Assembly (NCBI RefSeq): GCF_026241335.1
Contig: NZ_JAPHAV010000004.1
Coordinates: forward strand, 124,001-188,000
From: Ochrobactrum chromiisoli
Lineage (GTDB): Bacteria; Pseudomonadota; Alphaproteobacteria; Rhizobiales; Rhizobiaceae
Direction: 5' to 3'
DNA length: 64,000 bases
The notes under the pieces were generated by a model. That model was given only the letters and a program-made list of their open reading frames with translations. It did no database searches and was not told the DNA's origin. This document shows positions 35,723 to 60,898 of this stretch, one piece after another. How positions within the stretch are numbered: the stretch's first letter is position 1; every line of letters begins with the position of its first letter. The position numbers were made by a program, and so were the translations under genes.

Positions 35723-36346
35723 ATGACGCAAAAGGCGGAACCATCAGAGCTCATCATTGATTTTGTAGGCGGCGCAGTCGGCCATAGGTTCCGGTCCGGC
35801 GAAGGACGCGATCAGGCGCTTGCAAAAGCGGTAGGCTTCTCGCGCGGCGTCACGCCCGATATTGTGGACGCGACAGCTGGCCTTGGCCGTGATGCCTTTC
35901 TGCTTGCATCCCTTGGCGCGACTGTAACGCTGATTGAGCGCTCAAAGAAAATGTATGATTTGCTGAGTGACGCTCTCGCCCGTGCGCATTCCGAGGGCGG
36001 CAGATATGCGCAGACAATCGCGCGGATGACATTATTGCATGGCGATTCTTGCCTGCTCTTACCCGAATTGAAGCCGAAAGTGGTGCTGGTCGACCCGATG
36101 CATCCCCCACGCGGCAATTCGGCACTGGTCAAAAAAGAAATGCGACAAATCCGGGAGATCGTCGGCACGGACCCCGATTCAGAAAAGCTGATGCAAATCG
36201 CATTGGAAGTGGCAGAGAATCGCGTCGTTCTGAAATGGCCTTTAAGAGCCGAACCGATGCCGGGCCTACGCAAACCATCGCATCAGATCTTAGGCAAAAG
36301 CACGCGCTATGATGTGTTCGTCAAAACGAAAATCGTTGCACAATGA
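35723..36346 (+). CDS. rsmJ: 16S rRNA (guanine1516-N2)-methyltransferase RsmJ-like
   Basis: 207 residues. SAM-dependent methyltransferase with motif I DATAGLGRDAFLLASLGA (about 49-66) and motif IV VDPMHPPR followed by ALVKKEMRQIREIVG, both characteristic of RsmJ, which methylates G1516 of 16S rRNA in E. coli. It is cotranscribed with the pseudouridine synthase gene, so the pair forms a small rRNA-modification operon ending at the terminator 36445-36473. Confidence 0.88.
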   Translation: MTQKAEPSELIIDFVGGAVGHRFRSGEGRDQALAKAVGFSRGVTPDIVDATAGLGRDAFLLASLGATVTLIERSKKMYDLLSDALARAHSEGGRYAQTIARMTLLHGDSCLLLPELKPKVVLVDPMHPPRGNSALVKKEMRQIREIVGTDPDSEKLMQIALEVAENRVVLKWPLRAEPMPGLRKPSHQILGKSTRYDVFVKTKIVAQ

Positions 36347-36444
36347 ATAAATGACTGAATCTCTGAATTAAACCGGATGAACTGCGCGCAGATCTTGACT
36401 ATTTAGAGCTTGCGTTTTGGTTGTACAGGGCCCTTAAACAACAA

Positions 36445-36473
36445 AACCCGCCGCTGATGCGACGGGTTTTTTT
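36445..36473. terminator. Bidirectional terminator at the backbone/island junction
   Basis: AACCCG...CGGGTT stem with inner CGC/GCG pairs, followed by TTTTTTT on the plus strand and TTTTGTTGTTT on the minus strand. It would end rsmJ and also lies just after the 3' end of the tRNA remnant on the minus strand. Confidence 0.8.
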
Positions 36474-36480
36474 GATATTT

Positions 36481-36494
36481 TGGTTGCGGGGGCA
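36481..36494 (-). other. Remnant of the 3' end of an initiator tRNA (attachment-site-like)
   Basis: On the minus strand TGCCCCCGCAACCA is identical to the 3' acceptor end, with CCA, of alphaproteobacterial tRNA-fMet as I remember it. Upstream of it the expected T-arm is absent and foreign sequence begins. A terminator sits 8 bp past it, as for a real tRNA gene. This is the footprint left at the distal end of an island integrated in the 3' end of a tRNA gene; the intact tRNA should lie beyond the right edge of the window. Confidence 0.6.
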
Positions 36495-36610
36495 CGCAAC
36501 TACCGATACAGACATTCGCTGCAGGTGGCGGTATAGGAGCGCGCTGATATCATATCACTAATCGTCCCTACCCTTTTTTGCACCTTTAGGCTCGACCCGC
36601 ACGCACGCAG

Positions 36611-36919: not shown

Positions 36920-37393
36920 TCAACTCATACGTTGCGCCGAACTCCGTCTCAAATTTCTGGTTACTACGCTAGATTCCTCTAAGGAAATCGTGAGCACTTG
37001 GAAAAGAACTGCCGTCGACCATCCAAAAAGCATCACCCCGTTCATAGCAGTCATCGGTCCCATCAAATGCCAGTGCGCGAGTGGAATGATGTCGCCATAA
37101 CCAAGTGATGTAAAATTTACAAACGCAAAATAAAAATCATCCGAATCCTGCGAGATAGCGCCGATTATACTATAGGAAAGAGACCAGACTGCAATCTCTA
37201 ATACCTGCGCGGCCAAGAGAACCGAAGCGGTCAAAGTCATCGCTATTATGAGCTGCAAATACGGTGCTCTAAACTTAATCCGAGTCAAAAAAATCACCAG
37301 CTTAATGACAAAAATCGTCGCTAAAGCATGTATAACAATACTAGTTAGTCCGACCGCACTTCCGAGTCCCAACTGTATGATGCTTGATGGCAT
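36920..37393 (-). CDS. Two-helix potassium-channel-like protein
   Basis: 157 residues from ATG 37393 with a strong GGGGGGTGAC ribosome-binding site. Hydrophobic segments lie at about 14-36, 46-68 and 112-134, and the pore loop carries TSLGYGD (95-101), the potassium selectivity filter. The architecture fits the Ion_trans_2 family of small potassium channels, with no ligand-binding domain. It sits between IS3 elements, at the entrance of the island, and does not belong to the polysaccharide operon. Physiological role unknown. Confidence 0.78.
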   Translation of the reverse strand: MPSSIIQLGLGSAVGLTSIVIHALATIFVIKLVIFLTRIKFRAPYLQLIIAMTLTASVLLAAQVLEIAVWSLSYSIIGAISQDSDDFYFAFVNFTSLGYGDIIPLAHWHLMGPMTAMNGVMLFGWSTAVLFQVLTISLEESSVVTRNLRRSSAQRMS

Positions 37394-37643: not shown

Positions 37644-38474
37644 TTATGCCGCCACCATCATTGGTGTCAGCGCGTTAAAGTAGACCTGATCCGGTGTTTG
37701 TCGGTCAAGCGATGAATGTGGGCGTCGGCTGTTGTAGAAATTCAGATATCTGCCGATGCCAGTGCGGGCCTCGGACACGGTTTTGTAGGCGTGAAGATAA
37801 ACCTCTTCGTATTTGATTGATCGCCAGAGCCGCTCGACAAAGACATTGTCCCGCCACGAACCCTTGCCATCCATCGAGATGGCGATCTCTGCCTTTTTCA
37901 ACACGTTAGTGAAGTCGATGGACGTGAACTGTGATCCTTGATCGGTGTTGAATATTTCCGGCTTTCCATAGCGGTCCAGAGCTTCCTCAACCGCTTCGAT
38001 GCAGAAGTCCGCCTCCATCGTTATCGACAGTCGCCATGACAGAACCCGGCGGCTGAACCAGTCGACGACAGCGCACAGATAGACAAAACCACGAGCCATC
38101 GGAATATACGTTATATCCATTGCCCACACCTGATTGGGTCTGGTGACCGCTAGCTTGCGCAGGAGATAGGGATAGATTTTATGCCCTGGCGTTGGCTTGG
38201 AGGTGTTTGGGCGACGGTAAATCGCTTCAAGGCTCATCTTCTTCATCAGTGTTGAGACATGCAGCCGCCCAACCTCAAGCCCTTCTCCTTTCAAAAGCCC
38301 CTGCAACATCCGACTTCCCGCGAATGGATATTCCAGATGCAATTCATCGATCCGGCGCATCAGTGCCAAATCGCCATCCGATACAGGGCGCGGTGAATAG
38401 TAGACACTGCTACGGCTGAACCCGAGGAGCTTTGCCTGTCGGGCGACCGAAAGCTTGTGAGCGCGGTCGATCAT
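37644..38474 (-). CDS. IS3-family transposase OrfB
   Basis: 276 residues with the complete DDE triad: Asp120 in WAMDITYIP, Asp178 in FNTDQGSQF and Glu214 in NVFVERLWR, with 35 residues between the last two as required for the family. The ATG overlaps the orfA stop (ATGA), so it is either coupled or made by frameshift. Appears intact and may be active. Confidence 0.92.
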   Translation of the reverse strand: MIDRAHKLSVARQAKLLGFSRSSVYYSPRPVSDGDLALMRRIDELHLEYPFAGSRMLQGLLKGEGLEVGRLHVSTLMKKMSLEAIYRRPNTSKPTPGHKIYPYLLRKLAVTRPNQVWAMDITYIPMARGFVYLCAVVDWFSRRVLSWRLSITMEADFCIEAVEEALDRYGKPEIFNTDQGSQFTSIDFTNVLKKAEIAISMDGKGSWRDNVFVERLWRSIKYEEVYLHAYKTVSEARTGIGRYLNFYNSRRPHSSLDRQTPDQVYFNALTPMMVAA

Positions 38475-38803
38475 TTCCTTCCGCCCAGCAATCCCGCCTT
38501 GCTGAGCGCTCCGGCTAAAAAATCGTTCTCCAGAGTTAGCTCACCGATCTTGGCATGCAGCGTTTTAACGTCGACGGTTGGCTCTGCTGGTTCCGCCTTG
38601 GTATCGTGGCCGAAAACACCGATCGCCCCCTCAAGAAGCTGATCTTTCCATTGCTTTATCTGGTTCGCGTGCACGTCAAACTGCTGGGATAATTCCATTA
38701 GCGTCTGCTCGCCTCTGATCGCAGCGACCGCAACTTTTGCCTTGAAAGCTGGGCTATGGTTTCGGCGTGGTCGTCTCGTCATGGTATCTCCTGTTCCCGG
38801 CAT
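38471..38803 (-). CDS. IS3-family transposase OrfA
   Basis: Up to 110 residues; the real start is probably the ATG at 38782 (MTRRPRRNHSPAFKAKVAV). Helix-turn-helix of the HTH_Tnp_1 type (LMELSQQFDVHANQIKQWKD) followed by a leucine-zipper-like helix (LHAKIGELTLENDFLAGAL). Recognises the element ends and cooperates with OrfB. Confidence 0.9.
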   Translation of the reverse strand: MPGTGDTMTRRPRRNHSPAFKAKVAVAAIRGEQTLMELSQQFDVHANQIKQWKDQLLEGAIGVFGHDTKAEPAEPTVDVKTLHAKIGELTLENDFLAGALSKAGLLGGRK

Positions 38804-38840: not shown

Positions 38841-39698
38841 CTGTGCAGATTTCCCGAGCCACTTCTTTCCACACAGCGCATGATCGCAAAGACTCCGGAT
38901 GATGAAGCGGCGTTGACCGCAGACATCACGACGCTTGCCCTCCAGTACGGCCGTTATGGCTATCGTCGTATAACGACGATGCTGCACCAAGCTGGATGGA
39001 TCGTGAACGTCAAACGGGTCGAGCGAATCTGGCGACGGGAGGGGCTGAAAGTGCCTCACAAGCAACCGAAACGCAGCCGACTGTGGTTGAACGACAGTTC
39101 GTGCATCCGGCTTCGGCCGGAATATCCCAACCATGTCTGGTCCTACGACTTCGTCGAGGATCGCACGCATAACGACAGGAAAATCCGCATGCTCAACGTG
39201 ATCGATGAGTTCACGCGGGAATGCATCGCTATCAGGGTCGAGAGAAAGCTGAAGGCCGTCGATGTCATCGACGTGCTTTCCGACCTTTTCATCCTACGCG
39301 GCGTCCCCACCCATATTCGTTCCGACAATGGGCCGGAGTTCATCGCCAAGGCGCTACGGGAGTGGATCGCAGCAGTCGGTTCCAAGACCGCCTACATCAT
39401 GCCGGGCAGTCCATGGGAAAACGGCTATTGCGAGAGCTTCAACTCGAAACTCCGTGACGAACTGCTCAACGGCGAAATCTTCTACACGCTCAAGGGTGAG
39501 GTGGAAAAGCAATCGATCCGGTGAATCGATTGCCCACCAAACAAGATCATCATCGAAAACTGGCGACAGCATTACAATACAGTGCGGCCCCATTCATCAC
39601 TGGGCTACAAGCCACCGGCACCCGAAACAGTCGTCTGGCCTAAACAAAATGGCCCAGCGTCAACACCAGCAGTGGCAAGTCGACCCAGCATGCACTAA
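38841..39698 (+). pseudogene. Truncated and disrupted IS3-family transposase OrfB (second element)
   Basis: The frame encodes rve-domain residues: GRYGYRRITTMLHQAGW, then VWSYDFVEDRTHNDRKIRML (first Asp), HIRSDNGPEFIAKALREW (second Asp) and ENGYCESFNSKLRDELL (Glu). Its 5' part and the orfA are missing, cut by the neighbouring IS. After TLKGEVEKQSIR a stop occurs; the normal end (IIIENWRQHYNTVRPHSSLG) follows in another frame to a stop at 39698, separated by a palindromic insert. It cannot be functional. Confidence 0.9.
39493..39542. repeat. Palindromic insert interrupting the transposase
   Basis: GCAATCGAT-CCGGTGA-ATCGATTGC, flanked by GTGG and CCAC, stands where the transposase should read straight from TLK to IIIENW. 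It looks like a small REP/hairpin-type element that has landed in the dead IS. Borders are approximate. Confidence 0.55.
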
Positions 39699-39752: not shown

Positions 39753-41060
39753 CTAATTCCGACTATACTGTTCAATTCCCGATGGCACTTCTGCTTCACG
39801 TCTATTACCATAAGAGAAAAAAAGTGCATTCAGGAAAGCAAAGATCATCACAACACCCATCGTTCGCAATGGATAGTCAACCGTCGAGTGAATAAAAATG
39901 ACAAAGATGGACAACAATACCAGTCTTGCGAGGGGCTGTTTTCTTACATCGATAAACTTTTTAATTAATAAATAAATATAAATTATAAAGAGCGTGAATG
40001 CTGGAATTCCACCCTCTAGTAATATCTCTAGATAATCATTATGGGCATGATTCACGTAATGTGAAAAAACCATCAACGGATCCTCATATAGTGGATAAAC
40101 CATATCAAAGGTTCCAAATCCGGTACCTAGTATCCAGTTTTGAATAATTGCGTGCCATGTAGTTACAGCAAATTCTAGACGGCCCAAATTGGGATCCAGT
40201 GCCCTGGAGCTAATTTGCTCATAAGCTCCATAGCTGACAATCGCTATTGTAGCTAGCAATACCAGTGAAGAAACGACACCCAGGCGTCCACTCCATAGAA
40301 GTGATATCACCGATACAATCACAACAGTCAGGCCTATCAAGATCCCGGCGCGAGAACCGGCGGCTAGGAGAATTAACAATATAAAAACAATCGAGAAACT
40401 TGGCGCTAATACCCGATTATTCATAAAACCAAAGAATATAATTAAAGGTATGCTTGAAAAGATCAGCGTAGCAAAATGATTTCTGTTAGCAAACATTCCG
40501 ACCATAACCTCGTAACCGAGAAAATCGCCAAGATTATTATTGCCGCTAAACGAATATTGTAATCCAGCCGCGATCAAATTTGCCCATAATCCTATCATGA
40601 AAAATGGAACAACACTGAAAACCTTGCCTTGGGGAAGGCTTACCAATGCTGTAAAGAACATTAACGGCGTCAATGCGAATAGCAATGCTTGGACTGTACG
40701 CGTACTACCTACGCTTAGACTTGCAACGTAGATTGGAGATTCTACCGAGATACCCAACGGTAGCAAATCAAATGGACGTGCCCATTCGAGAAAACCAATC
40801 GGAAGCGGCACAACCTGTAATATGAAGAGTGCCAAAACGCATAGCATCATAACTAAGCCTAAACGCGCTGCATTGTTCCAGTTTTCTCTGGAAAATAATA
40901 CGTAGGCTGTGATAGTCACTGTTAGCAACTGCAATGTGAGATCGACACTTAAATATCGGGCGGTCCCTCCACCCACTAGCATGCACAACAATAGACAGAA
41001 GCCTAGCATATTCCTTTGTAACAAGATCTTGTTCTTAGATATATTGCCTGCAATAGCCAT
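39753..41060 (-). CDS. O-antigen ligase / polymerase-like membrane protein (Wzy_C family)
   Basis: 435 residues with about ten to twelve hydrophobic helices and a large external loop containing FGTFDMVYPLYEDP...YVNHAHNDYLEILLEGG; the HAHNDYLE motif is the signature of the O-antigen ligase-related (PF04932) family. It could polymerise the repeat unit or ligate the chain to lipid A or protein. Last gene of the polysaccharide cluster, 5 bp after the TPR-like gene, with which it probably pairs. A second, unlike polymerase candidate is encoded at 54086, so this one may be a ligase. Confidence 0.85.
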   Translation of the reverse strand: MAIAGNISKNKILLQRNMLGFCLLLCMLVGGGTARYLSVDLTLQLLTVTITAYVLFSRENWNNAARLGLVMMLCVLALFILQVVPLPIGFLEWARPFDLLPLGISVESPIYVASLSVGSTRTVQALLFALTPLMFFTALVSLPQGKVFSVVPFFMIGLWANLIAAGLQYSFSGNNNLGDFLGYEVMVGMFANRNHFATLIFSSIPLIIFFGFMNNRVLAPSFSIVFILLILLAAGSRAGILIGLTVVIVSVISLLWSGRLGVVSSLVLLATIAIVSYGAYEQISSRALDPNLGRLEFAVTTWHAIIQNWILGTGFGTFDMVYPLYEDPLMVFSHYVNHAHNDYLEILLEGGIPAFTLFIIYIYLLIKKFIDVRKQPLARLVLLSIFVIFIHSTVDYPLRTMGVVMIFAFLNALFFSYGNRREAEVPSGIEQYSRN

Positions 41061-41065
41061 GTTGA

Positions 41066-42295
41066 TTATTCTTTAATAATGCGAATATAATTGAAGCGAA
41101 CCTGTCCACTGTAACGGTCGTTCCAACTTTCTACCATTGCAGTTGTTCTCAAAGATAAAGTTTGAACGTGACATCCTTCGGATATATTAAAACTTGCGCG
41201 GATTACACGGTCATTGTAGTCACCTTGCGGAACTTCTGATTTTAGAATATTTTTATTTGGATCTGAACACATTAAATTCCAGATCAGTGCTTTCGGCATA
41301 TCTGCACGGGTTGCCGAAACGCTATACTCAAGTGAAAAACTGCCAGGTGGAAGCTTCAAAGTCTGCTGCAATCCCAATCGAATGATTGGAGTATTGGCAA
41401 ATTCTATCAACGCACCTTTTTGCTTTGCGGGTATAGTAATTTTAGCTCCGGGCTGCTGCCTTATCTGCCAGCCAAAAATTCGATTCTCGGAAGCAGCTTC
41501 GAACTCGGCATCAAAAATATATCCAGACAATCTTCGCTCATCTGGCGGTAACGTGAAAAGAAATGTTTGGTATGCAAGATCGTACGCTTTTTCCTTAAAT
41601 AGACTGGCTAAGATGGTTCTTGTATCTTCGGTGGTTGGTGGATTGCGACCCGATGCTAGCTCCGTTAGAAGCTGCGCAGTGAATGCCTTATTTGGCGATG
41701 TCTCCTCACTCATCACATTTATGAGAGCTCTTCTCCACGGCGGACCAGCACTTAGTTTTTCAGAAAAGATCTCAAAAGCGTCTGGGCTTTGAAAGAGAGT
41801 GGGGATAACAGAAGCTAAGCGTTTGATCTCATCCGGCCAACGACGAAACAGCAAATCTAACTTTTTTGATGCGGTATCGAAGTCACTTTCTATAACGGCG
41901 CGCTGAATCGACCACAGCAACGCGAACTTTTCAGTAGGCGCTAATGTCAGGGCATGACCAAACATCTGAACTTCGATAGATGACTGACCCTTCCTTCGAG
42001 CAATTTCACCTAATAAGCTATAGATTCTCGCATCGCCAGAATTAAAGGGGATCGCAGAGCGTAGAAGCTGTTCCACTTCCTCAAGCTGCGCGTCTGAGTT
42101 AGTGCTAGCTATTACTCTGCTACTGTAACTCAGCACTGCCTCGACATTGATTGCCGGTGCTGATAGCAGTAGATTGGTATGCCTCGTCTCAAGATATCGA
42201 CTTGAAACGCTCAATAAGCTGAGCAAAATAACCGTTAAAACGACGATTAATAAAGGCCAACGTCCATTTTCTGTCGTTACCTGCCGAATTGCCAT
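41066..42295 (-). CDS. Membrane-anchored TPR-like protein of the polysaccharide cluster
   Basis: 409 residues. A single N-terminal membrane helix (PLLIVVLTVILLSLLSV, about 13-31), then helical TPR-like repeats (about 70-270; for example ARIYSLLGEIARRKGQSSIE) and a C-terminal beta-rich part (about 290-409) reminiscent of carbohydrate-binding modules. The family is not recognised by name. It overlaps the end of the wzc-type gene by 107 bp and precedes the ligase-like gene. It could be a periplasmic scaffold for polymerase or ligase, as TPR domains are in some WaaL/PglL systems (inference). Confidence 0.7.
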   Translation of the reverse strand: MAIRQVTTENGRWPLLIVVLTVILLSLLSVSSRYLETRHTNLLLSAPAINVEAVLSYSSRVIASTNSDAQLEEVEQLLRSAIPFNSGDARIYSLLGEIARRKGQSSIEVQMFGHALTLAPTEKFALLWSIQRAVIESDFDTASKKLDLLFRRWPDEIKRLASVIPTLFQSPDAFEIFSEKLSAGPPWRRALINVMSEETSPNKAFTAQLLTELASGRNPPTTEDTRTILASLFKEKAYDLAYQTFLFTLPPDERRLSGYIFDAEFEAASENRIFGWQIRQQPGAKITIPAKQKGALIEFANTPIIRLGLQQTLKLPPGSFSLEYSVSATRADMPKALIWNLMCSDPNKNILKSEVPQGDYNDRVIRASFNISEGCHVQTLSLRTTAMVESWNDRYSGQVRFNYIRIIKE

Positions 42296-44570
42296 TGTCG
42301 ATGCCCAATTTATTTTCTGGTTTCGAAGTCACATCCTCCGACTGATAGTAATTATAGCTAAGGTACTTATAGTCATAATTATAGTCGAACTTTTTAATGG
42401 AGAATTTGGTAAATACTGCACCGACCACACTTGAGCCTGCGATACGTAACCGCTTAAGAGCATTGGCTGCAGCCTTGCGAGTAACCTGATCCGAGGAAAC
42501 AACTAGTAATGTTGCTTCTGATAATCGCCCTAGAATAAGTGCATCTGAAAGCCCAATCACAGGCGGGGAATCTATCAAGATCAGATCATGGCTTCGGCTG
42601 AGCTTTTCTAATATTAAACCCATTCTGCTGGATGACAGCAGATCAGCAGGATTTGGAGGAATTGTTCCCGCCGTTATGAGGCTTAAATGCGGTTTGATTT
42701 GCTTCACCAACATTTTTTGATCACTTTGGCGTATAGTTCGAGTCAGCAAATTGCTCAGACCCACGGCATTATCTACCTTGAAAAGACGGTGCAGCATTGG
42801 ACGGCGCATATCGGCATCTATAACTAATACCTTGGCCCCTAAGGCAGCAAAATCTTCCGCGAGCTTAAGTATCGTTGTCGATTTGCCTTCAGACGGCTCT
42901 GAACTTGTAACTGCAAGGATTTGTGGCGCGCCTTCTTCACCCGAGAACTGCAACGATGTACGTAGCGATCGATAAGCCTCGGATAAACCCGATTGCGGAT
43001 CTGAAACTGACCGAGCAAAGTCTGCATCGCTCGTAGACGGAATAATCCCCAATAGAGGTAACTGAAGTTCCTTTTCGATTTGGTCGGGCGTGGCAAATGT
43101 ATTGTTGAGTAACTCCAATACATAAATCGCTGCAACGCCAATCATAACTGACAATATAAGCCCAATAGCAAGATTTAGACTTAATCGAGGAGAATATGGC
43201 CTCTGGGGTGCAACGGCGAGGTCAACAATGGCGGCATTTTCGTTTTTGAGCTCTGAACTAATCGAGACTTCATTTAGTTTTGCGATCAAACTATCATACT
43301 GTGACCGATTTGAATCAACTTCACGTTTGAGAATTGTGTATTGAATATTTTTATCTTGATAAGCTGACTGATCCGCTTCAAGTTGACTCAACTTTGACTG
43401 TAAGTCAGTTATTTTAGCTTGCGTTTCTTGATATCTAAGTCTGATAGAATCGGTTATTGCGCGCACGCCAAGGTTAATCTGATTTTCAAGCTCTCCAATT
43501 TGAGAACGAAGCTGCTGCATCTCAGGAAAACTTGGCTTAAACAAGCTCAGTTTCTGCTGATATTCACCGTTAAGTTCAGCCAGGCGTACACGTAATTTAT
43601 CCAGACCTTCACTCTTAAGAACCTGTTCCAAGCTTGCACCTTGACCACTATCAATTTGCTGTACAAGCCGCCCATAGCTTAGGTTTTCCTGAACTGCACT
43701 ACCAAGTGCCTCGTTGATCTTGACAAGGCTTTCTGTGATAAGTGAGTTGTTATCGCCTGTGATCGTTAAACCAACCTTTTTCGCATACTCAACAAGCTCT
43801 TCTTCAGATTGCTGCAATCGACCTTTCGCGTGCACTACTTGCTCTTGTATAAATTTGCGTGCCTGCGAAGATGTATCACTAGCCTGGTCAACTCTTTGAT
43901 CAATAAAACTCTGAGCCACTTGATTTGCGATTTCATAAGTGTACTTAGGCGTTTGATCTGTATAAGTTATTGAGAGCAGGCTTGTGTTAGCTAATAAGCT
44001 TATGTTTAGATTTTTTTGAACGCGATCCACGGCCATGCGCACGCGCTCTTCAGGCGAGAAGTCTGACAATTCGCTGCTGCCCGCAGCGCCTCCGAATGCA
44101 CGTGTAAATATGTTCAAGGGCGAAAAACTTGGCCTTGGAAAAAGAAAGTCAGCGCGTTCACTTAACCCGAGATTGAATACAACTCTTTCTGCGATCGCAC
44201 GACTGCGGAGCTTCTCACTTGCAGTTTGAAAGGCTCGGATATCACCACTTTCCGTGGTGACTTCAATGTCTTGGAAAACCTTCGCAGATGGAACCAACAC
44301 CTCTAATTGTGCCGATGCTCGGTATTTGGGAGTGACCATCATTGTAATTGCGAGAGCGGAAAAGATGCCTATTACTGCAAGCGTAAGCAGCATCCAACGA
44401 TACTTCAAAACGTATAAAAAAAGACGAAATAGGTCTATTTCCTTTTCGTCAGGTGCAACCCCGTAACCGTATCCTAGGTGGGTGTAGGGCTGGGCTTCAA
44501 AGGCCACCGAGGTATTCTGAGGTCGTCCTGCCGCGTTAGGTGAACCAATTTTACGGAGATGGTTCGACAT
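42189..44570 (-). CDS. Polysaccharide co-polymerase with tyrosine autokinase (Wzc/ExoP type)
   Basis: 793 residues from ATG 44570 (MSNHLRKIGS). Wzz chain-length domain between membrane helices at about 52-73 and 468-490, with a long periplasmic coiled coil, then a cytoplasmic BY-kinase: Walker A SSEPSEGKSTTI (near 560), Walker A' VLVIDADMRRP (near 585), Walker B LILIDSPPVIG (near 667). The C terminus has a tyrosine cluster (FDYNYDYKYLSYNYYQSE, about 732-747), the autophosphorylation site. It sets chain length and couples synthesis to export with Wza. About 45 residues follow the tyrosine cluster and overlap the next gene. Confidence 0.93.
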   Translation of the reverse strand: MSNHLRKIGSPNAAGRPQNTSVAFEAQPYTHLGYGYGVAPDEKEIDLFRLFLYVLKYRWMLLTLAVIGIFSALAITMMVTPKYRASAQLEVLVPSAKVFQDIEVTTESGDIRAFQTASEKLRSRAIAERVVFNLGLSERADFLFPRPSFSPLNIFTRAFGGAAGSSELSDFSPEERVRMAVDRVQKNLNISLLANTSLLSITYTDQTPKYTYEIANQVAQSFIDQRVDQASDTSSQARKFIQEQVVHAKGRLQQSEEELVEYAKKVGLTITGDNNSLITESLVKINEALGSAVQENLSYGRLVQQIDSGQGASLEQVLKSEGLDKLRVRLAELNGEYQQKLSLFKPSFPEMQQLRSQIGELENQINLGVRAITDSIRLRYQETQAKITDLQSKLSQLEADQSAYQDKNIQYTILKREVDSNRSQYDSLIAKLNEVSISSELKNENAAIVDLAVAPQRPYSPRLSLNLAIGLILSVMIGVAAIYVLELLNNTFATPDQIEKELQLPLLGIIPSTSDADFARSVSDPQSGLSEAYRSLRTSLQFSGEEGAPQILAVTSSEPSEGKSTTILKLAEDFAALGAKVLVIDADMRRPMLHRLFKVDNAVGLSNLLTRTIRQSDQKMLVKQIKPHLSLITAGTIPPNPADLLSSSRMGLILEKLSRSHDLILIDSPPVIGLSDALILGRLSEATLLVVSSDQVTRKAAANALKRLRIAGSSVVGAVFTKFSIKKFDYNYDYKYLSYNYYQSEDVTSKPENKLGIDNGNSAGNDRKWTLAFINRRFNGYFAQLIERFKSIS

Positions 44571-44738
44571 TCTAGTCCAATCTTTCAATATCTGATGGCG
44601 TAGGCACCATTTGTGAGTTTATGATATACAATAATCACAAAACCACTCGTGTGTTCTTAACTCTAACGTTTGTCAGCTTTTTTACCACCACATAAAAAAG
44701 AATGGTGCTCAGGAACAAACGTTCTAATGGCTTGTAAT

Positions 44739-45494
44739 TTAAGGAATGATAACCGCTCGGCTTGCAGTAGCTGCCATCCCCAAAGATTCTTTCAAGTTAT
44801 TGATAGCCACCCGCTGACGTGAGGTAAATACCATTATGGTGTCTCCGCCGTAAATTCGCGGGTTGGCTAGTCGACCACTACGAATGTCTTCGACGCTATA
44901 ATTCGCTACTAATTTGCTATTACCAACATCCCTGAAGACAAAAACCTTTTTTTGATCTGCAATATCCCGCAACCCGCCCGATAAAGCGATTGCATCGAGC
45001 AACGTTGTCTGAGCTGTCACGGGATATAGGCCCGCTCGTGCTACCTCTCCGTCAACTGTTACCCGTTGGCGAGCAGACTCTTTTAAGAAAACAGTGATAT
45101 TTGGTGACTGTAAATATGATGCACCGTATAAGCGAATAAGCTCTTGCTCGACCTCTCGCACGCTTTTACCATTGACATTGACAACCCCAACGAGTGGCAA
45201 AGATATGCGTCCGCCAGAGTCAACTTGAACCGTGCTGTTTAATGTTGGCACGCCAAAAAAATTAACATCCAGAATATCGTTTGAAGAAATAAGCTGGTCT
45301 GCTCCGTCATTCGTACCAGCAGGTGCTGGTAGTGTTTTTACCAACCTCAGGCTGCCATCGTTACTGACTGAAGCCGATGCATTCGACTGCAATGATAATA
45401 CATCTGTAGGAGAAGCTCCGGTGTTAGCAGTACCTGTGCAACCAGACACGAAGCCCACCAATACAGACAAAACTGCTATTTGATTTATTGACAT
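44739..45494 (-). CDS. Polysaccharide export outer-membrane lipoprotein (Wza type)
   Basis: 251 residues. Lipobox VSGC at Cys19, then a Poly_export domain (SNDILDVNFFGVPTLNSTVQ, SLPLVGVVNVNGKSVREVEQ) and SLBB domains (VTVDGEVARAGLYPVTAQTT). It forms the outer-membrane pore for the polymer. It is 4 bp from the start of nothing else downstream and lies between the phosphatase and kinase genes, a typical export module. Confidence 0.92.
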   Translation of the reverse strand: MSINQIAVLSVLVGFVSGCTGTANTGASPTDVLSLQSNASASVSNDGSLRLVKTLPAPAGTNDGADQLISSNDILDVNFFGVPTLNSTVQVDSGGRISLPLVGVVNVNGKSVREVEQELIRLYGASYLQSPNITVFLKESARQRVTVDGEVARAGLYPVTAQTTLLDAIALSGGLRDIADQKKVFVFRDVGNSKLVANYSVEDIRSGRLANPRIYGGDTIMVFTSRQRVAINNLKESLGMAATASRAVIIP

Positions 45495-45497
45495 AAA

Positions 45498-46307
45498 TCA
45501 CCTGTCTCCAAAGATCCGGCTAATTACTTTAACCATTGCATTGCCAGATGACCGGCTCTTCTCGACATCGGATTTGCGTTTGAACGAAAACTTAATTTCT
45601 TGATTGGACACAATTGCCATAGGTCGCTTAACAAAAAGTTCTTCTGCTTCAGATTTTCCGATTTTAGCAGCAATATGATTATAGGCTAATGACAACAAGG
45701 GACGTCGATACTTTATTCCATGAGCATCGGTAGCAACAATTCCGGCGCGACCTTCGGCAAGTATGCGCTCAGCTACTTTTTTTGCAAGCGACCCGAAATC
45801 GCCCAACAGAGAACCAGCGGTCAATTGTAGTAAGCATCCCATGTCTGACAGTTTGATAAACACCTCATAATGCCTATCACCCCACAACAATCTCTCTGGA
45901 TGAGTGATAATAGGAACATATCCTGCTAATAAGGCTTTCTCTGCCAAATCTGGCAATCGCGGTGGTAAGACCTCGTGAGGTGGCTCCAGGAGAAAGTAGC
46001 GAGAGCCATTTAAGGTTGGGACTTCACCCAACGTAATCCGATCAATCAAATCAATAGACACGTGCGCATCTGCGCCACACATCAACCTAAGAGCGATTTT
46101 TTTTTCATTGAGTACAGATTGCAAGGCTTTAATAGCCGGTAAAATAATAGCGGAATTATTTTCATACTTCCCAGGAAATATGTGCGGCGTACAAGCCATA
46201 TGGGTAATTCCATCAGCAACTGCAATTCGCGCCATTTCAACAGACACTTCGATATCTGAAGCACCATCATCTATGCCGTGTAATATATGTGAATGAAGAT
46301 CAATCAT
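45498..46307 (-). CDS. PHP-type protein-tyrosine phosphatase (CpsB/CapC/YwqE family)
   Basis: 269 residues. Metal-dependent phosphatase: HSHILHGIDDGA at residues 4-15 supplies metal ligands, followed by ACTPHIFPGKY, LMCGADAHVSIDL, ITHPERLLWGD and VATDAHGIKYRRP. Family members dephosphorylate the tyrosine-rich tail of polysaccharide kinases. Most proteobacterial clusters instead have a Wzb low-molecular-weight phosphatase; none is seen here. 3 bp before the wza-type gene. Confidence 0.92.
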   Translation of the reverse strand: MIDLHSHILHGIDDGASDIEVSVEMARIAVADGITHMACTPHIFPGKYENNSAIILPAIKALQSVLNEKKIALRLMCGADAHVSIDLIDRITLGEVPTLNGSRYFLLEPPHEVLPPRLPDLAEKALLAGYVPIITHPERLLWGDRHYEVFIKLSDMGCLLQLTAGSLLGDFGSLAKKVAERILAEGRAGIVATDAHGIKYRRPLLSLAYNHIAAKIGKSEAEELFVKRPMAIVSNQEIKFSFKRKSDVEKSRSSGNAMVKVISRIFGDR

Positions 46308-46410
46308 TAGGTGAAATCAATTTCATGAAAACCTCTGCCGCGTTGTTACTGAACGATGCTATACAAGGTTCGAATTTTTAATTAATCTCGAATGTAAATC
46401 TTCATAAAAT

Positions 46411-46436
46411 CACGGCGCCCAACTCGGAGCGCCGCG
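46411..46436 (-). terminator. Hairpin after FecR-like gene, weak terminator
   Basis: CGGCGC...GCGCCG pairs around a 10-base loop, about 18 bp beyond the stop of the 46454-46987 gene, followed on the minus strand by GTGATTTTATG. Confidence 0.45.
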
Positions 46437-46453
46437 GGATAACTCATAATCAA

Positions 46454-46987
46454 TTAACGGCTAACGGATCGATCGCGGTTCGCGACACTAATAACTACCG
46501 CACTGGCACCGATGGTTGCCGCGATGGTTACAGGGGTCACCAACACAGGACCAACAGATGCACCAGCCACGCCAATTGGTGCACCATAAACTGTAGACGC
46601 GCTACTTATATCTGCCACTGAACCACCAGCACTGATGTTGGAAGTCACGCTTAAGCACTGATTGCCATTTTGCAATTTCGAGACGAGGGTCGCATTATCG
46701 GCCAAACGCAAAGAGCAACTGGAACCAAAATTAATAGTTGACGCCGATTTTGGGCCAGACACGACAGAGCTATCTGCTGAAACACGCATCGCTTTAATAA
46801 GCGGCACAGCCCCGTTCGACTGCGAAACATATACCGCTCCTCGAACGGCCTCAACAACACCTACAGAACCTTCTGGAACTAGACAAGTACATTCATTCGA
46901 CTGCGCTAACGAACTTGCCGAAGACAGCAAGAGAACCACTGTGGTCCCAGTGAGGCACTTAGCAAAAGCCCGAGCCAATACAGACAT
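46454..46987 (-). CDS. Exported FecR-like small protein, unknown function
   Basis: 177 residues with GAGGGAAATTTC before the ATG. Signal peptide to about residue 29 (LLLSSASSLAQ). The mature part has VEAVRGAVYVSQSNGAVPLI and SADSSVVSGPKSASTINFGS, the layout of a FecR beta-domain, with three cysteines (two in CTC near the mature N terminus, one in CSLRLAD, one in QCLSV). It ends in a hydrophobic helix (VTIAATIGASAVVISVA) and a basic RDRSVSR tail. It stands between the two halves of the polysaccharide cluster. Function unknown. Confidence 0.6.
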   Translation of the reverse strand: MSVLARAFAKCLTGTTVVLLLSSASSLAQSNECTCLVPEGSVGVVEAVRGAVYVSQSNGAVPLIKAMRVSADSSVVSGPKSASTINFGSSCSLRLADNATLVSKLQNGNQCLSVTSNISAGGSVADISSASTVYGAPIGVAGASVGPVLVTPVTIAATIGASAVVISVANRDRSVSR

Positions 46988-47380
46988 GAAATTTCCCTCT
47001 AAGATTCCTAATTACTCAGACTTTATAGCCTAATATGAAGTCGAGTCAATGAACGACTTCAGGAGGGTGACACGAACGCTATCTGATGCGCACATTAGAA
47101 ATAAGGCGCTTGTCTCTTCTTCGCCGAAAAAATGGAAGACAAAGCGCTTATAATTGAAATTATGCCTAAAAGCTGATTAAACGATACATTCTAAGGGAAA
47201 GTATCTTTACTGGCCGTCAATGTCCCGATTTCCCAAATTGCAGCAATAAATAGTCAATTGTATATGTAGAAAATCTTCCACTCAGACCGATGGCGCTCTG
47301 GATCTATTAAGACTTCCCAAATCCATGAATTGCTAATATTATGATATACAACCAAGCAATGGTATAATTTTCCTGATTAA
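46988..47380. other. AT-rich intergenic region in polysaccharide cluster
   Basis: 393 bp without an ORF of note. It probably carries the promoter for the FecR-like and export genes. I saw no clear operator or terminator. Confidence 0.45.
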
Positions 47381-47845
47381 TTAACAGGGACGGTAATAGC
47401 CACCAGATTGTGCAGGGAGATCACAAAAAATACCTTCCTCACTTAATATACGTGCGACATCTCGTTTATCGCTCGTAAGGCACTGCACGACAATAACTTC
47501 GCCGAAGCGAGTGGCCGAATTTCCATCGCAAGGCGTTCCTCCACCCACCTGTGTGCATTTAACTTCACTGCCTTGAAGGCTTCTGCGGGCTCCAGCAAGC
47601 ATGAGATCCTCAAATTGTCTGGGTTTGGTGAACGATACACCACATAATGCTATTTTTCGCCCAGACACACGTAAATCGGAAAGTGAATTAATGTTTAACT
47701 GACCGGACAAATGGATAGGATCGGTACTCTGAGTATCATTTATATTTGAACGAGCGATTTTTCTTTGTTCGGCCAATAAATATAGAACAAATGAAATGAA
47801 GCATAAAAATACCAATAATAATAAAATTGTCTTTTTTATACTCAT
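47381..47845 (-). CDS. Membrane-anchored SNase-like protein, probably non-catalytic
   Basis: About 154 residues from ATG 47845. N-terminal membrane helix (ILLLLVFLCFISFVLYLLA), then a linker and a domain resembling a thermonuclease OB-fold: GRKIALCGVSF in place of the usual IRLxGIDAPE, RRSLQGSEVKCTQ, RFGEVIVVQC in place of DRYGRxVAxC, and ARILSEEGIFCDL. The catalytic Arg/Glu residues of staphylococcal nuclease are not visible, and several cysteines suggest disulfides outside the cytoplasm. Family call is tentative. Lone gene, 89 bp before the next one upstream. Confidence 0.55.
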   Translation of the reverse strand: MSIKKTILLLLVFLCFISFVLYLLAEQRKIARSNINDTQSTDPIHLSGQLNINSLSDLRVSGRKIALCGVSFTKPRQFEDLMLAGARRSLQGSEVKCTQVGGGTPCDGNSATRFGEVIVVQCLTSDKRDVARILSEEGIFCDLPAQSGGYYRPC

Positions 47846-47934
47846 AGGCACAGCACCTTACTATATCTAAGACGTTCTCTCCATACAACCATACAGCGGT
47901 AGTAGGTGAACGTTAATAGGGAGATAAAACAATG

Positions 47935-49158
47935 CTAAGATACGACGTCTAACAATACTTCTCGCATTTTGTATGCCAACTCCCGTCGATCAAATTGTTG
48001 CGCACTTTCTTGGCAATTTTGTGCCAGATTTTCGCGAAGGTCGCTGTTGGTATGCAACTCTATAACTGCCTGCGTCATTTCACCTGCTGATTCCGGTTCA
48101 ATTAATAACCCAACTTCATGATGGCGAACAATATCAGCAGCTTCCCCCTTTACACCAAATAGAACAGGCACTCCCATTGCCATGCTCTCAAACAGTTTCG
48201 AAGGAATGACTGACTTGAAGAGATCGTCATTTTTTAGATGAATTAAAGAAACGTCCAAAAGAGACCAATAACGAGTGACCTCGCTTTTCGGAACAGATTC
48301 CAAAAAGAGGACGTTATGTATGCGTTCAGTTTCTACGCGCTTCATCAGGTGTTTTTTCTGAGCCCCGTCCCCGAGCATTAATATGCGGATATCCGTAAGT
48401 CCCAACTTACTGATGTTTTTAGCTGTATCAAGAACTGTGTCTAGGCCATGAGCCATGCCCATCGTGCCAATATAGCCCAATATAAAACAGTCCTGTAATT
48501 CGTATCGTTTGATTAAATTCTCGTCTTTTGCCATTGGCTTGTAGCGTGAAAGATCTGCACCATTTGTAACAACGTGTATCTTTTCAGCCGGAACAGCCCG
48601 CGCAATCAGGTTATCACGAAATGAGTTTGTGACCGAAATCACTGCATCTGCGCGATGATATAAAAATAGTTCTAATCTCTCTAACATGTCGAGTAGCGAA
48701 GACTTTTTCATAGCGCCCACTACACGAATTGATTCTGGCCACAGATCACGAAGTTCAAAAACCCAAGGACGACGCTTAAGCAAGCCCGTAAGCCATCCAG
48801 CGACGGCGGTGAAAAATTGTGGCGACGTAGCGACAATAAGGTCCACCCTTTTGACGAAAAGGGCAGCTACAGTAGCAGAAATCATAAAGCTTATATAATC
48901 GAGGCTGCGTCGAATGAACCCTTCATTTGCTGAGATGTAGCTCCACACTCGAATTACCTGGACGCCCTCAATTTCCTCGCGCTGCCAAAGCCGATTAGTA
49001 TAACCGGCAAATACACGGCCTTTTGGAAAATTGGGAACGCACGTTATTACTGTGACCTGGTGACCATCCTGAACCCATTCTCGAGCGTGTTCAAATGTAC
49101 GGGATGCAGGTGCGTTAACTTCTGGTGGGAAATTATCAGTCAGAAACAGTATATGCAT
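47935..49158 (-). CDS. GT4 glycosyltransferase, WbuB-like
   Basis: About 407 residues from ATG 49158, whose ATG overlaps the stop of the heparinase-like gene (TAATG). N-terminal HILFLTDNFPPEVNAPASRT, VVTCVPNFPKGRVF-type segment and WQREEIEGVQVIRVW match WbuB-type transferases, which add L-fucosamine-type residues in some O antigens. The GT4 end has GYIGTMGMAHGLD and VPVLFGVKGEAADIVRHHEVG (nucleotide-sugar site with the Glu of the E-x7-E motif). No L-FucNAc synthesis genes are in view, so the donor may differ. Confidence 0.88.
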   Translation of the reverse strand: MHILFLTDNFPPEVNAPASRTFEHAREWVQDGHQVTVITCVPNFPKGRVFAGYTNRLWQREEIEGVQVIRVWSYISANEGFIRRSLDYISFMISATVAALFVKRVDLIVATSPQFFTAVAGWLTGLLKRRPWVFELRDLWPESIRVVGAMKKSSLLDMLERLELFLYHRADAVISVTNSFRDNLIARAVPAEKIHVVTNGADLSRYKPMAKDENLIKRYELQDCFILGYIGTMGMAHGLDTVLDTAKNISKLGLTDIRILMLGDGAQKKHLMKRVETERIHNVLFLESVPKSEVTRYWSLLDVSLIHLKNDDLFKSVIPSKLFESMAMGVPVLFGVKGEAADIVRHHEVGLLIEPESAGEMTQAVIELHTNSDLRENLAQNCQESAQQFDRRELAYKMREVLLDVVS

Positions 49159-50792
49159 TATTTTGCCCAATGGATTTCTATTGCTAACCGACCGTTATTA
49201 AGCGGAATAGCTAAACATGTTGTCGTTTCGCTTATCCCGAACTCAGGATGCCATGTAGTCGTCTCCGTATTAAATGTCGCGTCACCAAAGTCCAGCCACA
49301 AGACCTTACCATTTTCTAATTTTAACTCAGGAATACCATCACTTACGGTAAATTTGACCTTCGGATGTAGATGTAACCGAGCCACTGAAGACGTGATCGG
49401 TGTTGAAGAAACGACCTGATCCTCAACTCGTAACTTCTTATTCATCAACAAAAATCTTCGGCGATGCACAGGTTTCCCGGGTAGATAAGAATAGCCGTCG
49501 TGACTAGCGGATGCGATTAAAGAATTACTGGAGGGCAGTACATCAATTTCTGATACACGCGCACGCCTGCCAACTCGAAAACCTCCCCAAACCTCCGAAC
49601 TATTTTGGCCGTTGAGGACGACCGTATTGTGAGCTGCTGTGCCACGCTGTCGCAAACGCTCTGTACTATTTCCATACTCACCAGTCCCGCTATTGACGAA
49701 TACACGTTGCCCAAAGCAGGAAAATTCAAAGCTTAAAGTGTCTGCGTGCGCATGACCGGGTAAATAATCTGGACCGATCTCTGCAAAATCGGCAATTACC
49801 ACCGCTGGCCCTGCAGTTAAACGTACATAGCCAGAAGAGCTAAGATGTTCAACCGGTCCAGGGATGGACGGTGGTCGTATGTCTAGCGCATCCGAATAGA
49901 GTCCCAATGAATCATTATCTGGCGCAACGCCGAACGCTGCATCATTAAAGAACGCTATACCGCCATCTGGATGACTGAGCCTGTCAAGCCATTCTCGAGC
50001 GCTCACTGCACGACTATCAAGCTTAGACCTGAGTTCTGAAGAGAGCAGTTCAGGAAATGATCGCGCCAAATTGAGTATGTCCAATAGATCTTCAAGCGCC
50101 AAAGCATGATACATCGTTGAAAGTTCAAACTGCCCACCATCGCCTAAAAATTGCTCATCCAGTTGCCGCAGTAATATTGTCTGGGCTTTGTGAAGCCATA
50201 GTTCAGCTTCTTTCCCTTCGAAAAAGTGGCCCGCAAATAGCAACGCCTTAGCATTTGCAAACAAATGATTACCCAGAAGATGCCATTCTAAACGCTCCGA
50301 TAAAGCCCGAGTTTGCACCGCCAAAGAGTGCCGTGCCGTAATCGAGAGTTTACCACTGGATAAGTGCCATTTAATCCAGTTAACAATACGTAGCGACAAC
50401 GGGTAGGGCTCCCAACCAGAGCCGTATCCAGGAGCATTGTCGTTAATCCAACGCTCAATTAAATCACTATGCCAAGCGTGACGGCTCTGCCAATCTTTTG
50501 CTTGTAGATCGTTAAAATAATGAAGATTATATCGCCACAGTTTAGGCATTGTTGGGCTATCCCACCCCACGCTTCCTAAATCATGTTCAGAATTAAGGAA
50601 GCGGAAACGTTGTGGCCCAAGCTGACCGCACTCTCGCATAGCTGGCTGGGACCATTTTCCAAACTGCCTCCGCATTGGAGGAGCTGGACTCAAGTCAGGT
50701 TTAATCTTCTTGAGCCGAAACCATACTCGTCCGTAGATTTGAATGGGCTTAAGGTAACGAACGGTGCGCCACAGACGAGGTATGGCAATCAT
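49158..50792 (-). CDS. Heparinase II/III-family protein
   Basis: 544 residues. An alpha-helical toroid in the N-terminal two-thirds (RYNLHYFNDLQAKDWQS, YGSGWEPYPLSLRIVNWIKW, WHLLGNHLFANAKALLFAG) is followed by the Hepar_II_III beta domain (YLPGHAHADTLSFEFSCFGQ with the catalytic-type His/Tyr, AHNTVVLNGQNSSEVWG). It has no obvious signal peptide. In the same order with a two-domain oxidoreductase and a WbuB-like transferase this gene occurs in several O-antigen/EPS clusters; it may modify or trim the uronic polymer. Its ATG overlaps the upstream gene by 4 bp. Confidence 0.88.
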   Translation of the reverse strand: MIAIPRLWRTVRYLKPIQIYGRVWFRLKKIKPDLSPAPPMRRQFGKWSQPAMRECGQLGPQRFRFLNSEHDLGSVGWDSPTMPKLWRYNLHYFNDLQAKDWQSRHAWHSDLIERWINDNAPGYGSGWEPYPLSLRIVNWIKWHLSSGKLSITARHSLAVQTRALSERLEWHLLGNHLFANAKALLFAGHFFEGKEAELWLHKAQTILLRQLDEQFLGDGGQFELSTMYHALALEDLLDILNLARSFPELLSSELRSKLDSRAVSAREWLDRLSHPDGGIAFFNDAAFGVAPDNDSLGLYSDALDIRPPSIPGPVEHLSSSGYVRLTAGPAVVIADFAEIGPDYLPGHAHADTLSFEFSCFGQRVFVNSGTGEYGNSTERLRQRGTAAHNTVVLNGQNSSEVWGGFRVGRRARVSEIDVLPSSNSLIASASHDGYSYLPGKPVHRRRFLLMNKKLRVEDQVVSSTPITSSVARLHLHPKVKFTVSDGIPELKLENGKVLWLDFGDATFNTETTTWHPEFGISETTTCLAIPLNNGRLAIEIHWAK

Positions 50793-55420: not shown

Positions 55421-55421
55421 G

Positions 55422-56666: not shown

Positions 56667-56674
56667 ACCTACGG

Positions 56675-57331
56675 TCACCCTTCATAGTTCGTCGGATGAT
56701 GACCATGCGCTTTGAAGGGTTGTGCAAAGTATTTACTTGTTCGATCAAGCTCGCGTCTTGGGGCAGCCGGGCTACCTGCAAGTACGACGTATTCCTCTTT
56801 ATGCTGGCGCGCAACTACGCTGCCCATACCGACAAATGTACCATTGTTCACCAGCGAACCTGGGATAAAACGGCACGCCGCCCCGATATAACACCAGTCT
56901 CCGATTTCCACTGAGCGCGTCACAGTAATATTCAATGGGTCAGCACTATGAGTATAAATAATCGTTGATCGCCCGGCAATGATAGTGTTATTTCCTATTC
57001 TCACACCGCCTGAAGCCTCGATAAAATGGAACCTGCGGATGGAACTGTTACGCCCTAATCTTAGCCACCCTTTACCAGCTCCCGTGATCCAATTGAGAGA
57101 TTCAATCTTTGAACCGCTTGCCATTTCGAGTTCTGATAATCGGTGCAAAAGATTAAAATGCCCGATCCTTACATAATCTCCAAGGTGAAGCCTACGTACA
57201 TTTACAAGCGAACAACCAATGTAGCAACCTCGCCCGATCTTTGCACCACCGGCTCTCAGCAAAACAATCTTGAGAGGGTTGGGGATCACAGCTATTAATA
57301 AAGTGATAAGTAGACACAAAGCGCGCTTCAT
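56675..57331 (-). CDS. Left-handed beta-helix acyltransferase
   Basis: 218 residues. Hexapeptide-repeat rhythm ([67 protein letters not shown]) of the WbbJ/LbH family, preceded by a hydrophobic stretch at the N terminus. Probably O-acetylates a sugar of the repeat; the acceptor is unknown. Its ATG overlaps the TviB stop by 4 bp. Confidence 0.87.
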
Positions 57332-58605: not shown

Positions 58606-58615
58606 GTTTCCTGCA

Positions 58616-60891: not shown

Positions 60892-60898
60892 GTCTGTT

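What the first reader, a model, noticed from the sequence alone, without database searches (positions are those of the whole stretch)
36481..36494. Genomic-island boundary at a tRNA-fMet 3' end
TGCCCCCGCAACCA (minus strand) equals the acceptor end of alphaproteobacterial initiator tRNA, is followed by a terminator as in a real tRNA gene, but the T-arm and the rest are missing and IS-rich, AT-richer DNA begins at once. This is the pattern left when an element integrates into the 3' end of a tRNA gene. It makes everything from about 36.5 kb to beyond the window edge a candidate mobile island carrying the polysaccharide locus. No integrase is in view, so it should lie further right, next to the intact tRNA.
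Basis: partly seen in the sequence, partly recalled or inferred. Interest (0 to 1): 0.7.

Follow-up and report, generated by a model that had tools for sequence, protein, structure and literature searches.

The report
Genomic island at initiator tRNA gene
A 90-kilobase block of foreign DNA carrying a surface-polysaccharide locus sits in the tail of an initiator-tRNA gene, probably put there by an enzyme of the large serine recombinase type, many of whose relatives sit at methionine-tRNA genes in other bacteria of this class.

Summary
Confirmed. The 14-mer at 36,481-36,494 (-) is the displaced 3' end of tRNA-fMet; its next 79 bases, terminator included, equal those behind an intact fMet gene elsewhere in this genome. 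They are large serine recombinases (LSRs), not tyrosine recombinases. The island (C45:160,481-250,209) carries the polysaccharide locus, IS elements, a SIR2-HerA defence pair and an autotransporter; none of three conjugation-gene families tested lies in it. A relative (G015) has a 104-kb island of another LSR subtype at the same place. LSR2's last codons and stop lie inside the tRNA; the stop is the antisense of U33 plus two anticodon bases. This recurs in 63 of 66 distinct LSRs at intact fMet genes. Of 158 distinct LSRs (chosen by similarity, not at random), 124 abut an fMet 3' end, 9 an elongator tRNA-Met, 24 neither. tRNA-associated islands are ordinary; LSRs at tRNA genes are described as rare, so an LSR clade specialised on tRNA-Met is the interesting part. 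Integration and excision are inferred, not shown.

The parts
35723..36346 (+). rsmJ (SAM-dependent methyltransferase), last chromosomal gene before the island
   Evidence: Pfam SAM_MT PF04445 E 3.9e-65; rsmJ-sized match in 29 of the 34 other genomes searched in the genus
36443..36473 (-). intrinsic terminator of the original tRNA-fMet / rRNA operon, left behind by the insertion (limits by eye)
   Evidence: 93 bases from the core start identical to those behind the intact fMet on C8; similar terminators behind fMet genes of relatives
36481..36494 (-). displaced 3' end of tRNA-fMet: core of the left attachment site (attL)
   Evidence: exact 14-mer; direct repeat with C45:250,196-250,209
36495..36514 (-). 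left arm of the island's attachment site; its outer 10 bases TGTCTGTATC are an inverted copy of GATACAGACA in the right arm at C45:250,184-250,193
   Evidence: same left arm at two displaced cores of a Pseudochrobactrum contig and in Bradyrhizobium locus L163
36600..36800 (+). remnant of an IS3-family transposase (approximate limits)
   Evidence: read by eye; not tested by a family search
36920..37393 (-). ion-channel-domain protein
   Evidence: Pfam Ion_trans_2 E 1.2e-9
37644..38803 (-). IS3-family element, two ORFs
   Evidence: Pfam rve, HTH_21 for 37644-38474; 38471-38803 by position only
38880..39524 (+). second IS3-family transposase ORF
   Evidence: Pfam rve E 2.4e-20
39753..63470 (-). 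surface-polysaccharide locus: Wzy_C-domain protein, Wzz-tyrosine-kinase type protein, polysaccharide export protein, CpsB/CapC phosphatase type, glycosyltransferases, heparinase-like, UDP-sugar dehydrogenases and epimerases, sugar transferase
   Evidence: Pfam scans; homologue of the Wzy_C protein in 1 of the 34 other genomes searched in the genus

Best explanation
The window's right 27.5 kb is the left part of an 89.7-kb genomic island inserted into the 3' end of a tRNA-fMet gene, most likely the last gene of an rRNA operon. Most likely mechanism: a large serine recombinase of the island (LSR2, next to the tRNA, perhaps with its tandem partner LSR1) recombined an island site, whose centre copies the tRNA's 3' end, with the same stretch in the tRNA gene. 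The island's copy rebuilt the tRNA on the right; the original 14-nt end, with its terminator, was pushed to the left beside rsmJ. Shown: direct repeat, rebuilt tRNA, displaced end and terminator, LSR genes beside the tRNA, shared arm and module in Pseudochrobactrum, a parallel island at the same locus in G015, strong linkage of this LSR family to tRNA-Met 3' ends. Inferred: that LSR2 catalyses the reaction, that LSR1 helps, that the element can still excise.
For: Same-strand 14-bp repeat 89,715 bp apart, one copy in an intact tRNA-fMet. Terminator and flank identical to those of the fMet on C8. Two LSR ORFs without internal stops at the tRNA; LSR2 runs into the tRNA. Inverted 10-bp arms flank the two core copies. 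G015: rsmJ, then a displaced core at C3:2,130,619, then 104.2 kb further an LSR and an intact fMet core at C3:2,234,802, same orientation, with arms CGCAAGTAAAGAT and ATCTTTACTTGCG that are exact inverted copies. In the named scan, 62 of 79 LSR ORFs with enough flank abut an fMet 3' end. In the genus, 24 of 30 Recombinase-domain loci examined (of 64 matches) abut fMet or elongator tRNA-Met. Pseudochrobactrum asaccharolyticum carries LSR2-like (61%) and LSR1-like (56%) genes in the same order at fMet, with displaced cores 58 and 70 kb away bearing the same left arm. rsmJ lies 2.9-4.4 kb from an intact fMet in 11 of 14 regions fetched from relatives; 23S and 5S rRNA genes precede fMet in the one checked.
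Against: No orthologous empty site with the window's 135-bp rsmJ-to-core spacing and an intact tRNA was found. In 3 of 14 fetched regions no intact fMet was found near rsmJ: G015 is an occupied site, G005 holds a 45-nt fragment, and G026 showed nothing in 10 kb. One of the 11 intact ones (G008) is a base short. The contig ends 50 bp beyond the tRNA, so the rRNA operon is not seen in this assembly. A shuffle test of overall arm similarity was weak for this island (386 of 5000 as good). LSR1 has no attachment core at its own end. On the tree LSR2 is sister to the Pseudochrobactrum protein, yet it is more identical (71%) to others. 24 of 158 distinct LSRs show no tRNA or core. Excision was not tested.
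Confidence: 0.92

Rival explanations
1. The truncated end is a relic of a lost rRNA operon: recombination between rrn copies deleted all but the last 14 bases of fMet and its terminator, and the neighbouring foreign DNA is coincidental.
For: Terminator and flank are shared with another fMet copy; rRNA operons recombine readily (general knowledge).
Against: The break falls where the displaced ends of related LSR islands break, next to the same arm found in a Pseudochrobactrum contig; the intact fMet and LSR genes at the other end, and the parallel island in G015, are unexplained.
Confidence: 0.04
2. Composite region: a shorter LSR island near the tRNA, with the polysaccharide locus brought in separately by IS elements. 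As a history this is compatible with the best explanation, so the odds overlap.
For: Ten ORFs with transposase domains among the island proteins scanned; lower GC on the polysaccharide side (46.6% against 50.5% beyond).
Against: The polysaccharide locus lies between the two cores, and no other exact core in this orientation lies between them; the two partial matches inside, an 11-mer at C45:222,989 and a 2-mismatch copy at C45:228,187, are in the other orientation.
Confidence: 0.3
3. A tyrosine integrase, since lost, made the insertion, and the LSRs arrived later.
For: Tyrosine integrases are the usual users of tRNA 3' ends (PMC4383910, passages read); a 45-nt displaced fMet fragment in G005 may be the mark of another element class; fMet genes are linked to tyrosine-integrase elements in Sinorhizobium meliloti (PMC11476347, passages read).
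Against: LSRs abut fMet with recurring arms in many genera; no tyrosine-integrase domain turned up in the island proteins scanned with Pfam, but these are 46 of 97 ORFs of 60 aa or more.
Confidence: 0.04

Closest known systems
tRNA-associated genomic islands as defined by Islander (PMC4383910)
   Same: regenerated tRNA at one end, displaced fragment at the other, recombinase gene next to the tRNA
   Different: recombinase is a large serine recombinase; [quoted passage not shown]
Serine-recombinase elements at tRNA genes: eight Mycobacterium recombinases at tRNA-Leu and phage phiRSM1 at tRNA-Ser (PMC3218068, passages read)
   Same: serine recombinase using a tRNA gene, described there as rare
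   Different: those are at other tRNAs; here an alphaproteobacterial clade uses tRNA-fMet and related LSRs elongator tRNA-Met, with the gene's stop codon inside the tRNA. Not compared by sequence here
Mesorhizobium ICEs and IMEs (PMC8627217, passages read)
   Same: alphaproteobacterial elements, some at tRNA-Met; 6 of 79 carry serine recombinases
   Different: 73 of 79 carry tyrosine recombinases; the passages read do not say which site the serine ones use; this island has none of three conjugation-gene families tested
Staphylococcal cassette chromosome recombinases CcrA/CcrB/CcrC
   Same: CcrB is the best-scoring NCBIfam model for both LSRs; CcrA and CcrB also form a pair of adjacent LSRs (pairing recalled)
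   Different: scores far below the model's cut-off (83 and 65 against 900 bits); the SCC target is rlmH (recalled), not a tRNA

Membership tests
tRNA-associated genomic island | direct repeat of the tRNA 3' end at both ends | tested here: met
   14-mer at C45:160,481 and C45:250,196, same strand
tRNA-associated genomic island | intact tRNA at one end, truncated copy at the other | tested here: met
tRNA-associated genomic island | integrase gene beside the intact tRNA | tested here: met
   LSR2 abuts and overlaps the tRNA
tRNA-associated genomic island | unoccupied orthologous site in a relative | tested here: inconclusive
   paralogous C8 site identical over 93 bases from the core; 11 of 14 relatives have intact fMet 2.9-4.4 kb from rsmJ, but none with the window's 135-bp spacing
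tRNA-associated genomic island | excision to a circle | not testable with these tools
   needs reads or a bench test
Large serine recombinase | Resolvase, Recombinase and zinc-ribbon domains in this order | tested here: met
   all three in both proteins above Pfam cut-offs
Large serine recombinase | catalytic serine and arginines conserved | tested here: inconclusive
   Y-A-R-Y-S-S stretch invariant in 7 of 7 aligned; which serine is catalytic is recalled, not tested
Integrative and conjugative element | relaxase and type IV secretion genes inside the element | tested here: not met
   PF03135, PF03432 and PF03389 have one match each in the genome, on C7, C7 and C2, none in the island; other relaxase families not searched
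SCC element / Ccr recombinases | Ccr family score and rlmH target | tested here: not met
   far below NCBIfam cut-offs; site is tRNA-fMet

The most novel reading that the evidence does not exclude
A large, old clade of alphaproteobacterial serine recombinases is dedicated to tRNA-Met genes, initiator and elongator. The recombinase gene is built to end inside its target: the host tRNA supplies its last codons, and the CAU anticodon (with U33), read antisense, supplies its stop. On excision the frame would run into the other arm, so the protein's tail, and perhaps its directionality, would change with the integration state. In the window's element two LSRs work as a pair.
Probability: 0.25. Interest if true: 0.75.

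Novelty: new variant of a known kind. Interest (0 to 1): 0.52.

Why it matters
It explains how a whole surface-polysaccharide locus, with a defence pair, could be gained in one step at the end of an rRNA operon, and gives its borders. [quoted passage not shown] Island finders that pair tRNAs only with tyrosine integrases would miss such elements, and assemblies that break at rRNA operons hide them at contig ends. A recombinase with a fixed site in a conserved tRNA is also of interest for strain engineering.

Tried and rejected
Chance match: rejected by the 93-base identity with C8. Elongator or other tRNA as target: rejected; the intact copy is tRNA-Met(CAT) with the initiator-type C1-A72 (sequence; meaning recalled). 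ICE: three marker families lie elsewhere. Tripartite-ICE integrases IntG/IntM as the model: they are tyrosine recombinases (PMC5882170, passages). A second att core between LSR1 and LSR2 as a sign of nested islands: none seen. Distant LSRs as a negative control failed as a control: of 39 not at a contig end, 29 sit at fMet and 7 at elongator tRNA-Met, 3 at neither. A first adjacency count used too narrow a window and gave 49 'none' of 180; with a wider window gave 25. Among the 17 'none' of the named set at least one (L124, second ORF) looks like a spurious frame, judged by its very long branch; it was left in the count. Rfam at gathering threshold found nothing in the window. The TIGER paper PMC7192596 is not held, so its data on serine integrases at tRNAs were not seen.

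Full report
1. Observation. The 14-mer TGCCCCCGCAACCA is at 36,481-36,494 on the minus strand, exact and unique as an exact match in the window; no tRNA gene is predicted in the window. The window is G000:C45:124,001-188,000 of a 4.65-Mb, 52-contig genome; the 14-mer occurs 5 times in it. Four are the ends of complete tRNA-Met(CAT) genes at contig ends, each with the same 50 bases upstream, as expected where an assembly breaks at rRNA operons; the fifth is the window copy. The first 93 bases from the start of the core, terminator included, are identical to those behind the intact fMet of contig C8. Upstream of the core the T-arm is missing.

2. The other end. C45 goes on for 62 kb beyond the window. 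At its end lies an intact tRNA-fMet, C45:250,196-250,272 (-), in the same orientation as the truncated copy and 89,715 bp from it. The island therefore runs from C45:160,481 to 250,209. Two recombinase genes in tandem point at the tRNA: LSR1 (558 aa, C45:245,660-247,336) and LSR2 (ORF of 605 aa, C45:248,422-250,239; the homologous part begins near residue 41, so the true start may be there), with a GGDEF-like ORF (by eye) between them on the other strand. Both have Resolvase, Recombinase and zinc-ribbon domains, so they are large serine recombinases; they are 51% identical.

3. Attachment sites. Left of the core the island begins TGTCTGTATC-GGTAGTTGCG; right of the other core it begins CT-GATACAGACA. 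The outer 10 bases are inverted copies, and that 10-mer has no other exact match in the 126-kb stretch. A loose shuffle test of arm similarity is not convincing by itself (386 of 5000). The left arm recurs, as TGTCGGTATCGGT(A/G)GTTG, at displaced cores in Pseudochrobactrum and in Bradyrhizobium locus L163.

4. The same place in relatives. In the genus, 35 genomes (own included) were searched with rsmJ plus terminator; 32 match, 30 of them over rsmJ. I fetched 14 regions downstream of rsmJ: 11 hold an intact tRNA-Met in the window's relative orientation 2.9-4.4 kb away, one of them (G008) a base short. Of the other 3, G005 has a 45-nt displaced fragment, G026 showed neither tRNA nor core in 10 kb, and G015 has a 13-nt displaced end. 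G015 is the best parallel: its displaced core (C3:2,130,619) is followed 104.2 kb to the right by an LSR (46% to LSR2) running into an intact fMet (core C3:2,234,802), same orientation; the arms there, CGCAAGTAAAGAT and ATCTTTACTTGCG, are exact inverted copies. G002 (L042, not among the 14) also has a 13-nt displaced end, with an LSR beside it. G002 and G015 lack the Wzy_C homologue. In G007 23S and 5S rRNA genes lie just upstream of fMet. No region has the window's 135-bp spacing with an intact tRNA; G019 comes close (about 0.3 kb), but its contig ends 16 bases into the tRNA. The clearest empty site is therefore the paralogous C8 locus.

5. Same genome, other sites. C6: intact fMet followed by the C-terminal remnant of another LSR type (query residues 532-572, 71%), with a displaced core plus a similar terminator 16.9 kb away. 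C22: fMet followed by a C-terminal LSR remnant (residues 513-609, 68%). C8: native-type terminator, read as unoccupied. So 3 of 4 fMet loci here carry LSR marks.

6. The LSR family. 90 of 297 genomes of the family (own included) hold a match to LSR2 at E 1e-60 or better. In 77 of these 80, 85 LSR ORFs of 420 aa or more were found; leaving out 6 at contig ends, 62 of 79 have an fMet 3' end within 330 bp of the ORF end, 17 do not. Hosts with it include Paracoccus, Agrobacterium, Neorhizobium, Gluconacetobacter, Acetobacter, Sphingobium, Mesorhizobium and Bradyrhizobium. Of 40 more distant loci that I picked as intended controls, 1 is at a contig end, 29 are at fMet, 7 at elongator tRNA-Met, 3 at neither. 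In the genus, 24 of 30 Recombinase-domain loci examined (of 64 matches) abut fMet or elongator Met; of the other 6, one is at a contig end, one (L232, 34%) has no tRNA, and four (no hit, or 23-24% to LSR2) are not at tRNA-Met, one of them lying at tRNA-Arg. Pooled and made distinct by their last 300 residues: 167 LSRs, LSR2 included and LSR1 not; 9 at contig ends; of 158, 124 fMet, 9 elongator Met (sequences read), 1 tRNA-Arg, 24 none. All sets were chosen by similarity or score, so these shares are not population estimates. On a quick tree of 109 LSRs the site state changes 14 times against a shuffled mean of 42 (0 of 200 as low); one subclade with tails like RLSVSVKTRA has no tRNA and probably uses another site. 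Long branches make deep joins unsure.

7. Gene into tRNA. In 63 of 66 distinct LSRs at intact fMet and 8 of 9 at elongator Met the stop codon lies inside the tRNA; in 60 and 8 of them it is 44 nt from the 3' end, in 3 more 41 nt, consistent with the three Acetobacteraceae genes that lack an encoded CCA. There the gene reads TCA: U33 (numbering recalled) and the first two anticodon bases, whose antisense is the stop TGA. Typical tails read VAGAGFEPAAFRL. Whether this matters for function is open; by geometry the frame would run into the other arm in an excised circle.

8. Module. On the tree, window LSR1 and LSR2 are each sister (support 100 and 99) to a protein of Pseudochrobactrum asaccharolyticum DSM 25619, although LSR2 is more identical (71%) to others. 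The two genes stand there in the same order at fMet (61% and 56%), preceded by homologues of the island's 363-aa protein (60%) and, weakly, of its 96-aa protein (40% over 48 residues); a 755-aa helicase-like protein is shared too (48%); displaced cores lie 58 and 70 kb away. The 363-aa protein occurs in 3 of 394 family genomes, own included. This looks like one element family with changing cargo, so far seen in two genomes with both LSRs; the 96-aa protein as a directionality factor is a guess.

9. Cargo. Polysaccharide locus 39,753-63,470; a homologue of its Wzy_C protein in 1 of 34 other genus genomes. Beyond the window: IS110, IS4/5-type and IS3-type transposases, a 2236-aa autotransporter, a GlmS-like enzyme, helicases, SIR2 and HerA. 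Conjugation markers tested lie on C7 and C2, not here, so transfer would probably need help from elsewhere. 46 of 97 island ORFs of 60 aa or more were scanned with Pfam.

10. Organism. G010:C18 has the length (20,317) of NZ_VEWK01000025.1, Brucella pecoris, and an LSR of like identity, so the window's GTDB genus is taken to be Brucella in the wide sense that includes Ochrobactrum (inference).

11. Literature. [quoted passage not shown] PMC3218068 says such use is rare and names tRNA-Leu and tRNA-Ser cases (passages); the LSR survey PMC10083194 has no occurrence of 'tRNA' in its main text; in PMC11476347 on Sinorhizobium meliloti the integrases are tyrosine type, one with likeness to a serine recombinase too (passages). 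The passages I saw of PMC8627217, PMC10654092, PMC5704250, PMC12884075, PMC12424338, PMC7426155, PMC13386836 and PMC3925955 describe no tRNA-Met-specific LSR. In the lists of ten searches (several capped at 10-15 of more papers) no title or abstract start describes one. The library lacks most subscription papers and the TIGER paper.

Noticed in passing
G000 contig C6, 1-17,055 (L010, L257): A second, smaller (16.9 kb) remnant island between an intact fMet with an LSR C-terminal fragment and a displaced core with a native-type terminator.
   Followed up: partly
G000 contig C2, 66,725-66,735 (L256): Displaced fMet-like core with the arm of another LSR subtype (CGCAAGTAAAGAT); a MobA/MobL relaxase lies 17 kb away (C2:83,608).
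   Followed up: no
L053 and L217 (G015:C3:2,130,619-2,234,812): A 104-kb island of another LSR subtype at the same rsmJ-side fMet site in a relative.
   Followed up: partly
L046 (G024) 5,426-5,593 and L050 (G021) 5,668-5,834, locus coordinates: A stretch of about 170 bp between an intact fMet and a second copy of its 3' end in two species, too small for a gene island; partly shared sequence, nature unknown.
   Followed up: no
L043 (G005): A 45-nt displaced fMet fragment starting at the anticodon loop, pointing to another element class at the same hotspot.
   Followed up: no
L228 (G032:C1:1,151,621-1,154,932): An LSR outside the main clade whose gene overlaps a tRNA-Arg(CCG).
   Followed up: no
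L086, L143, L149, L151, L160: LSR subclade with tails like RLSVSVKTRA and no tRNA nearby; it probably uses a different conserved site.
   Followed up: no
C45:232,161-235,593 (L008:4,161-7,593): SIR2-HerA defence pair in the island, followed by a poly-gamma-glutamate-hydrolase-domain gene that overlaps it; role of the third gene unknown.
   Followed up: partly
L067, L121, L132, L133, L137: Convergent LSR pairs with an fMet core between them, as expected at the junction of tandem islands.
   Followed up: partly
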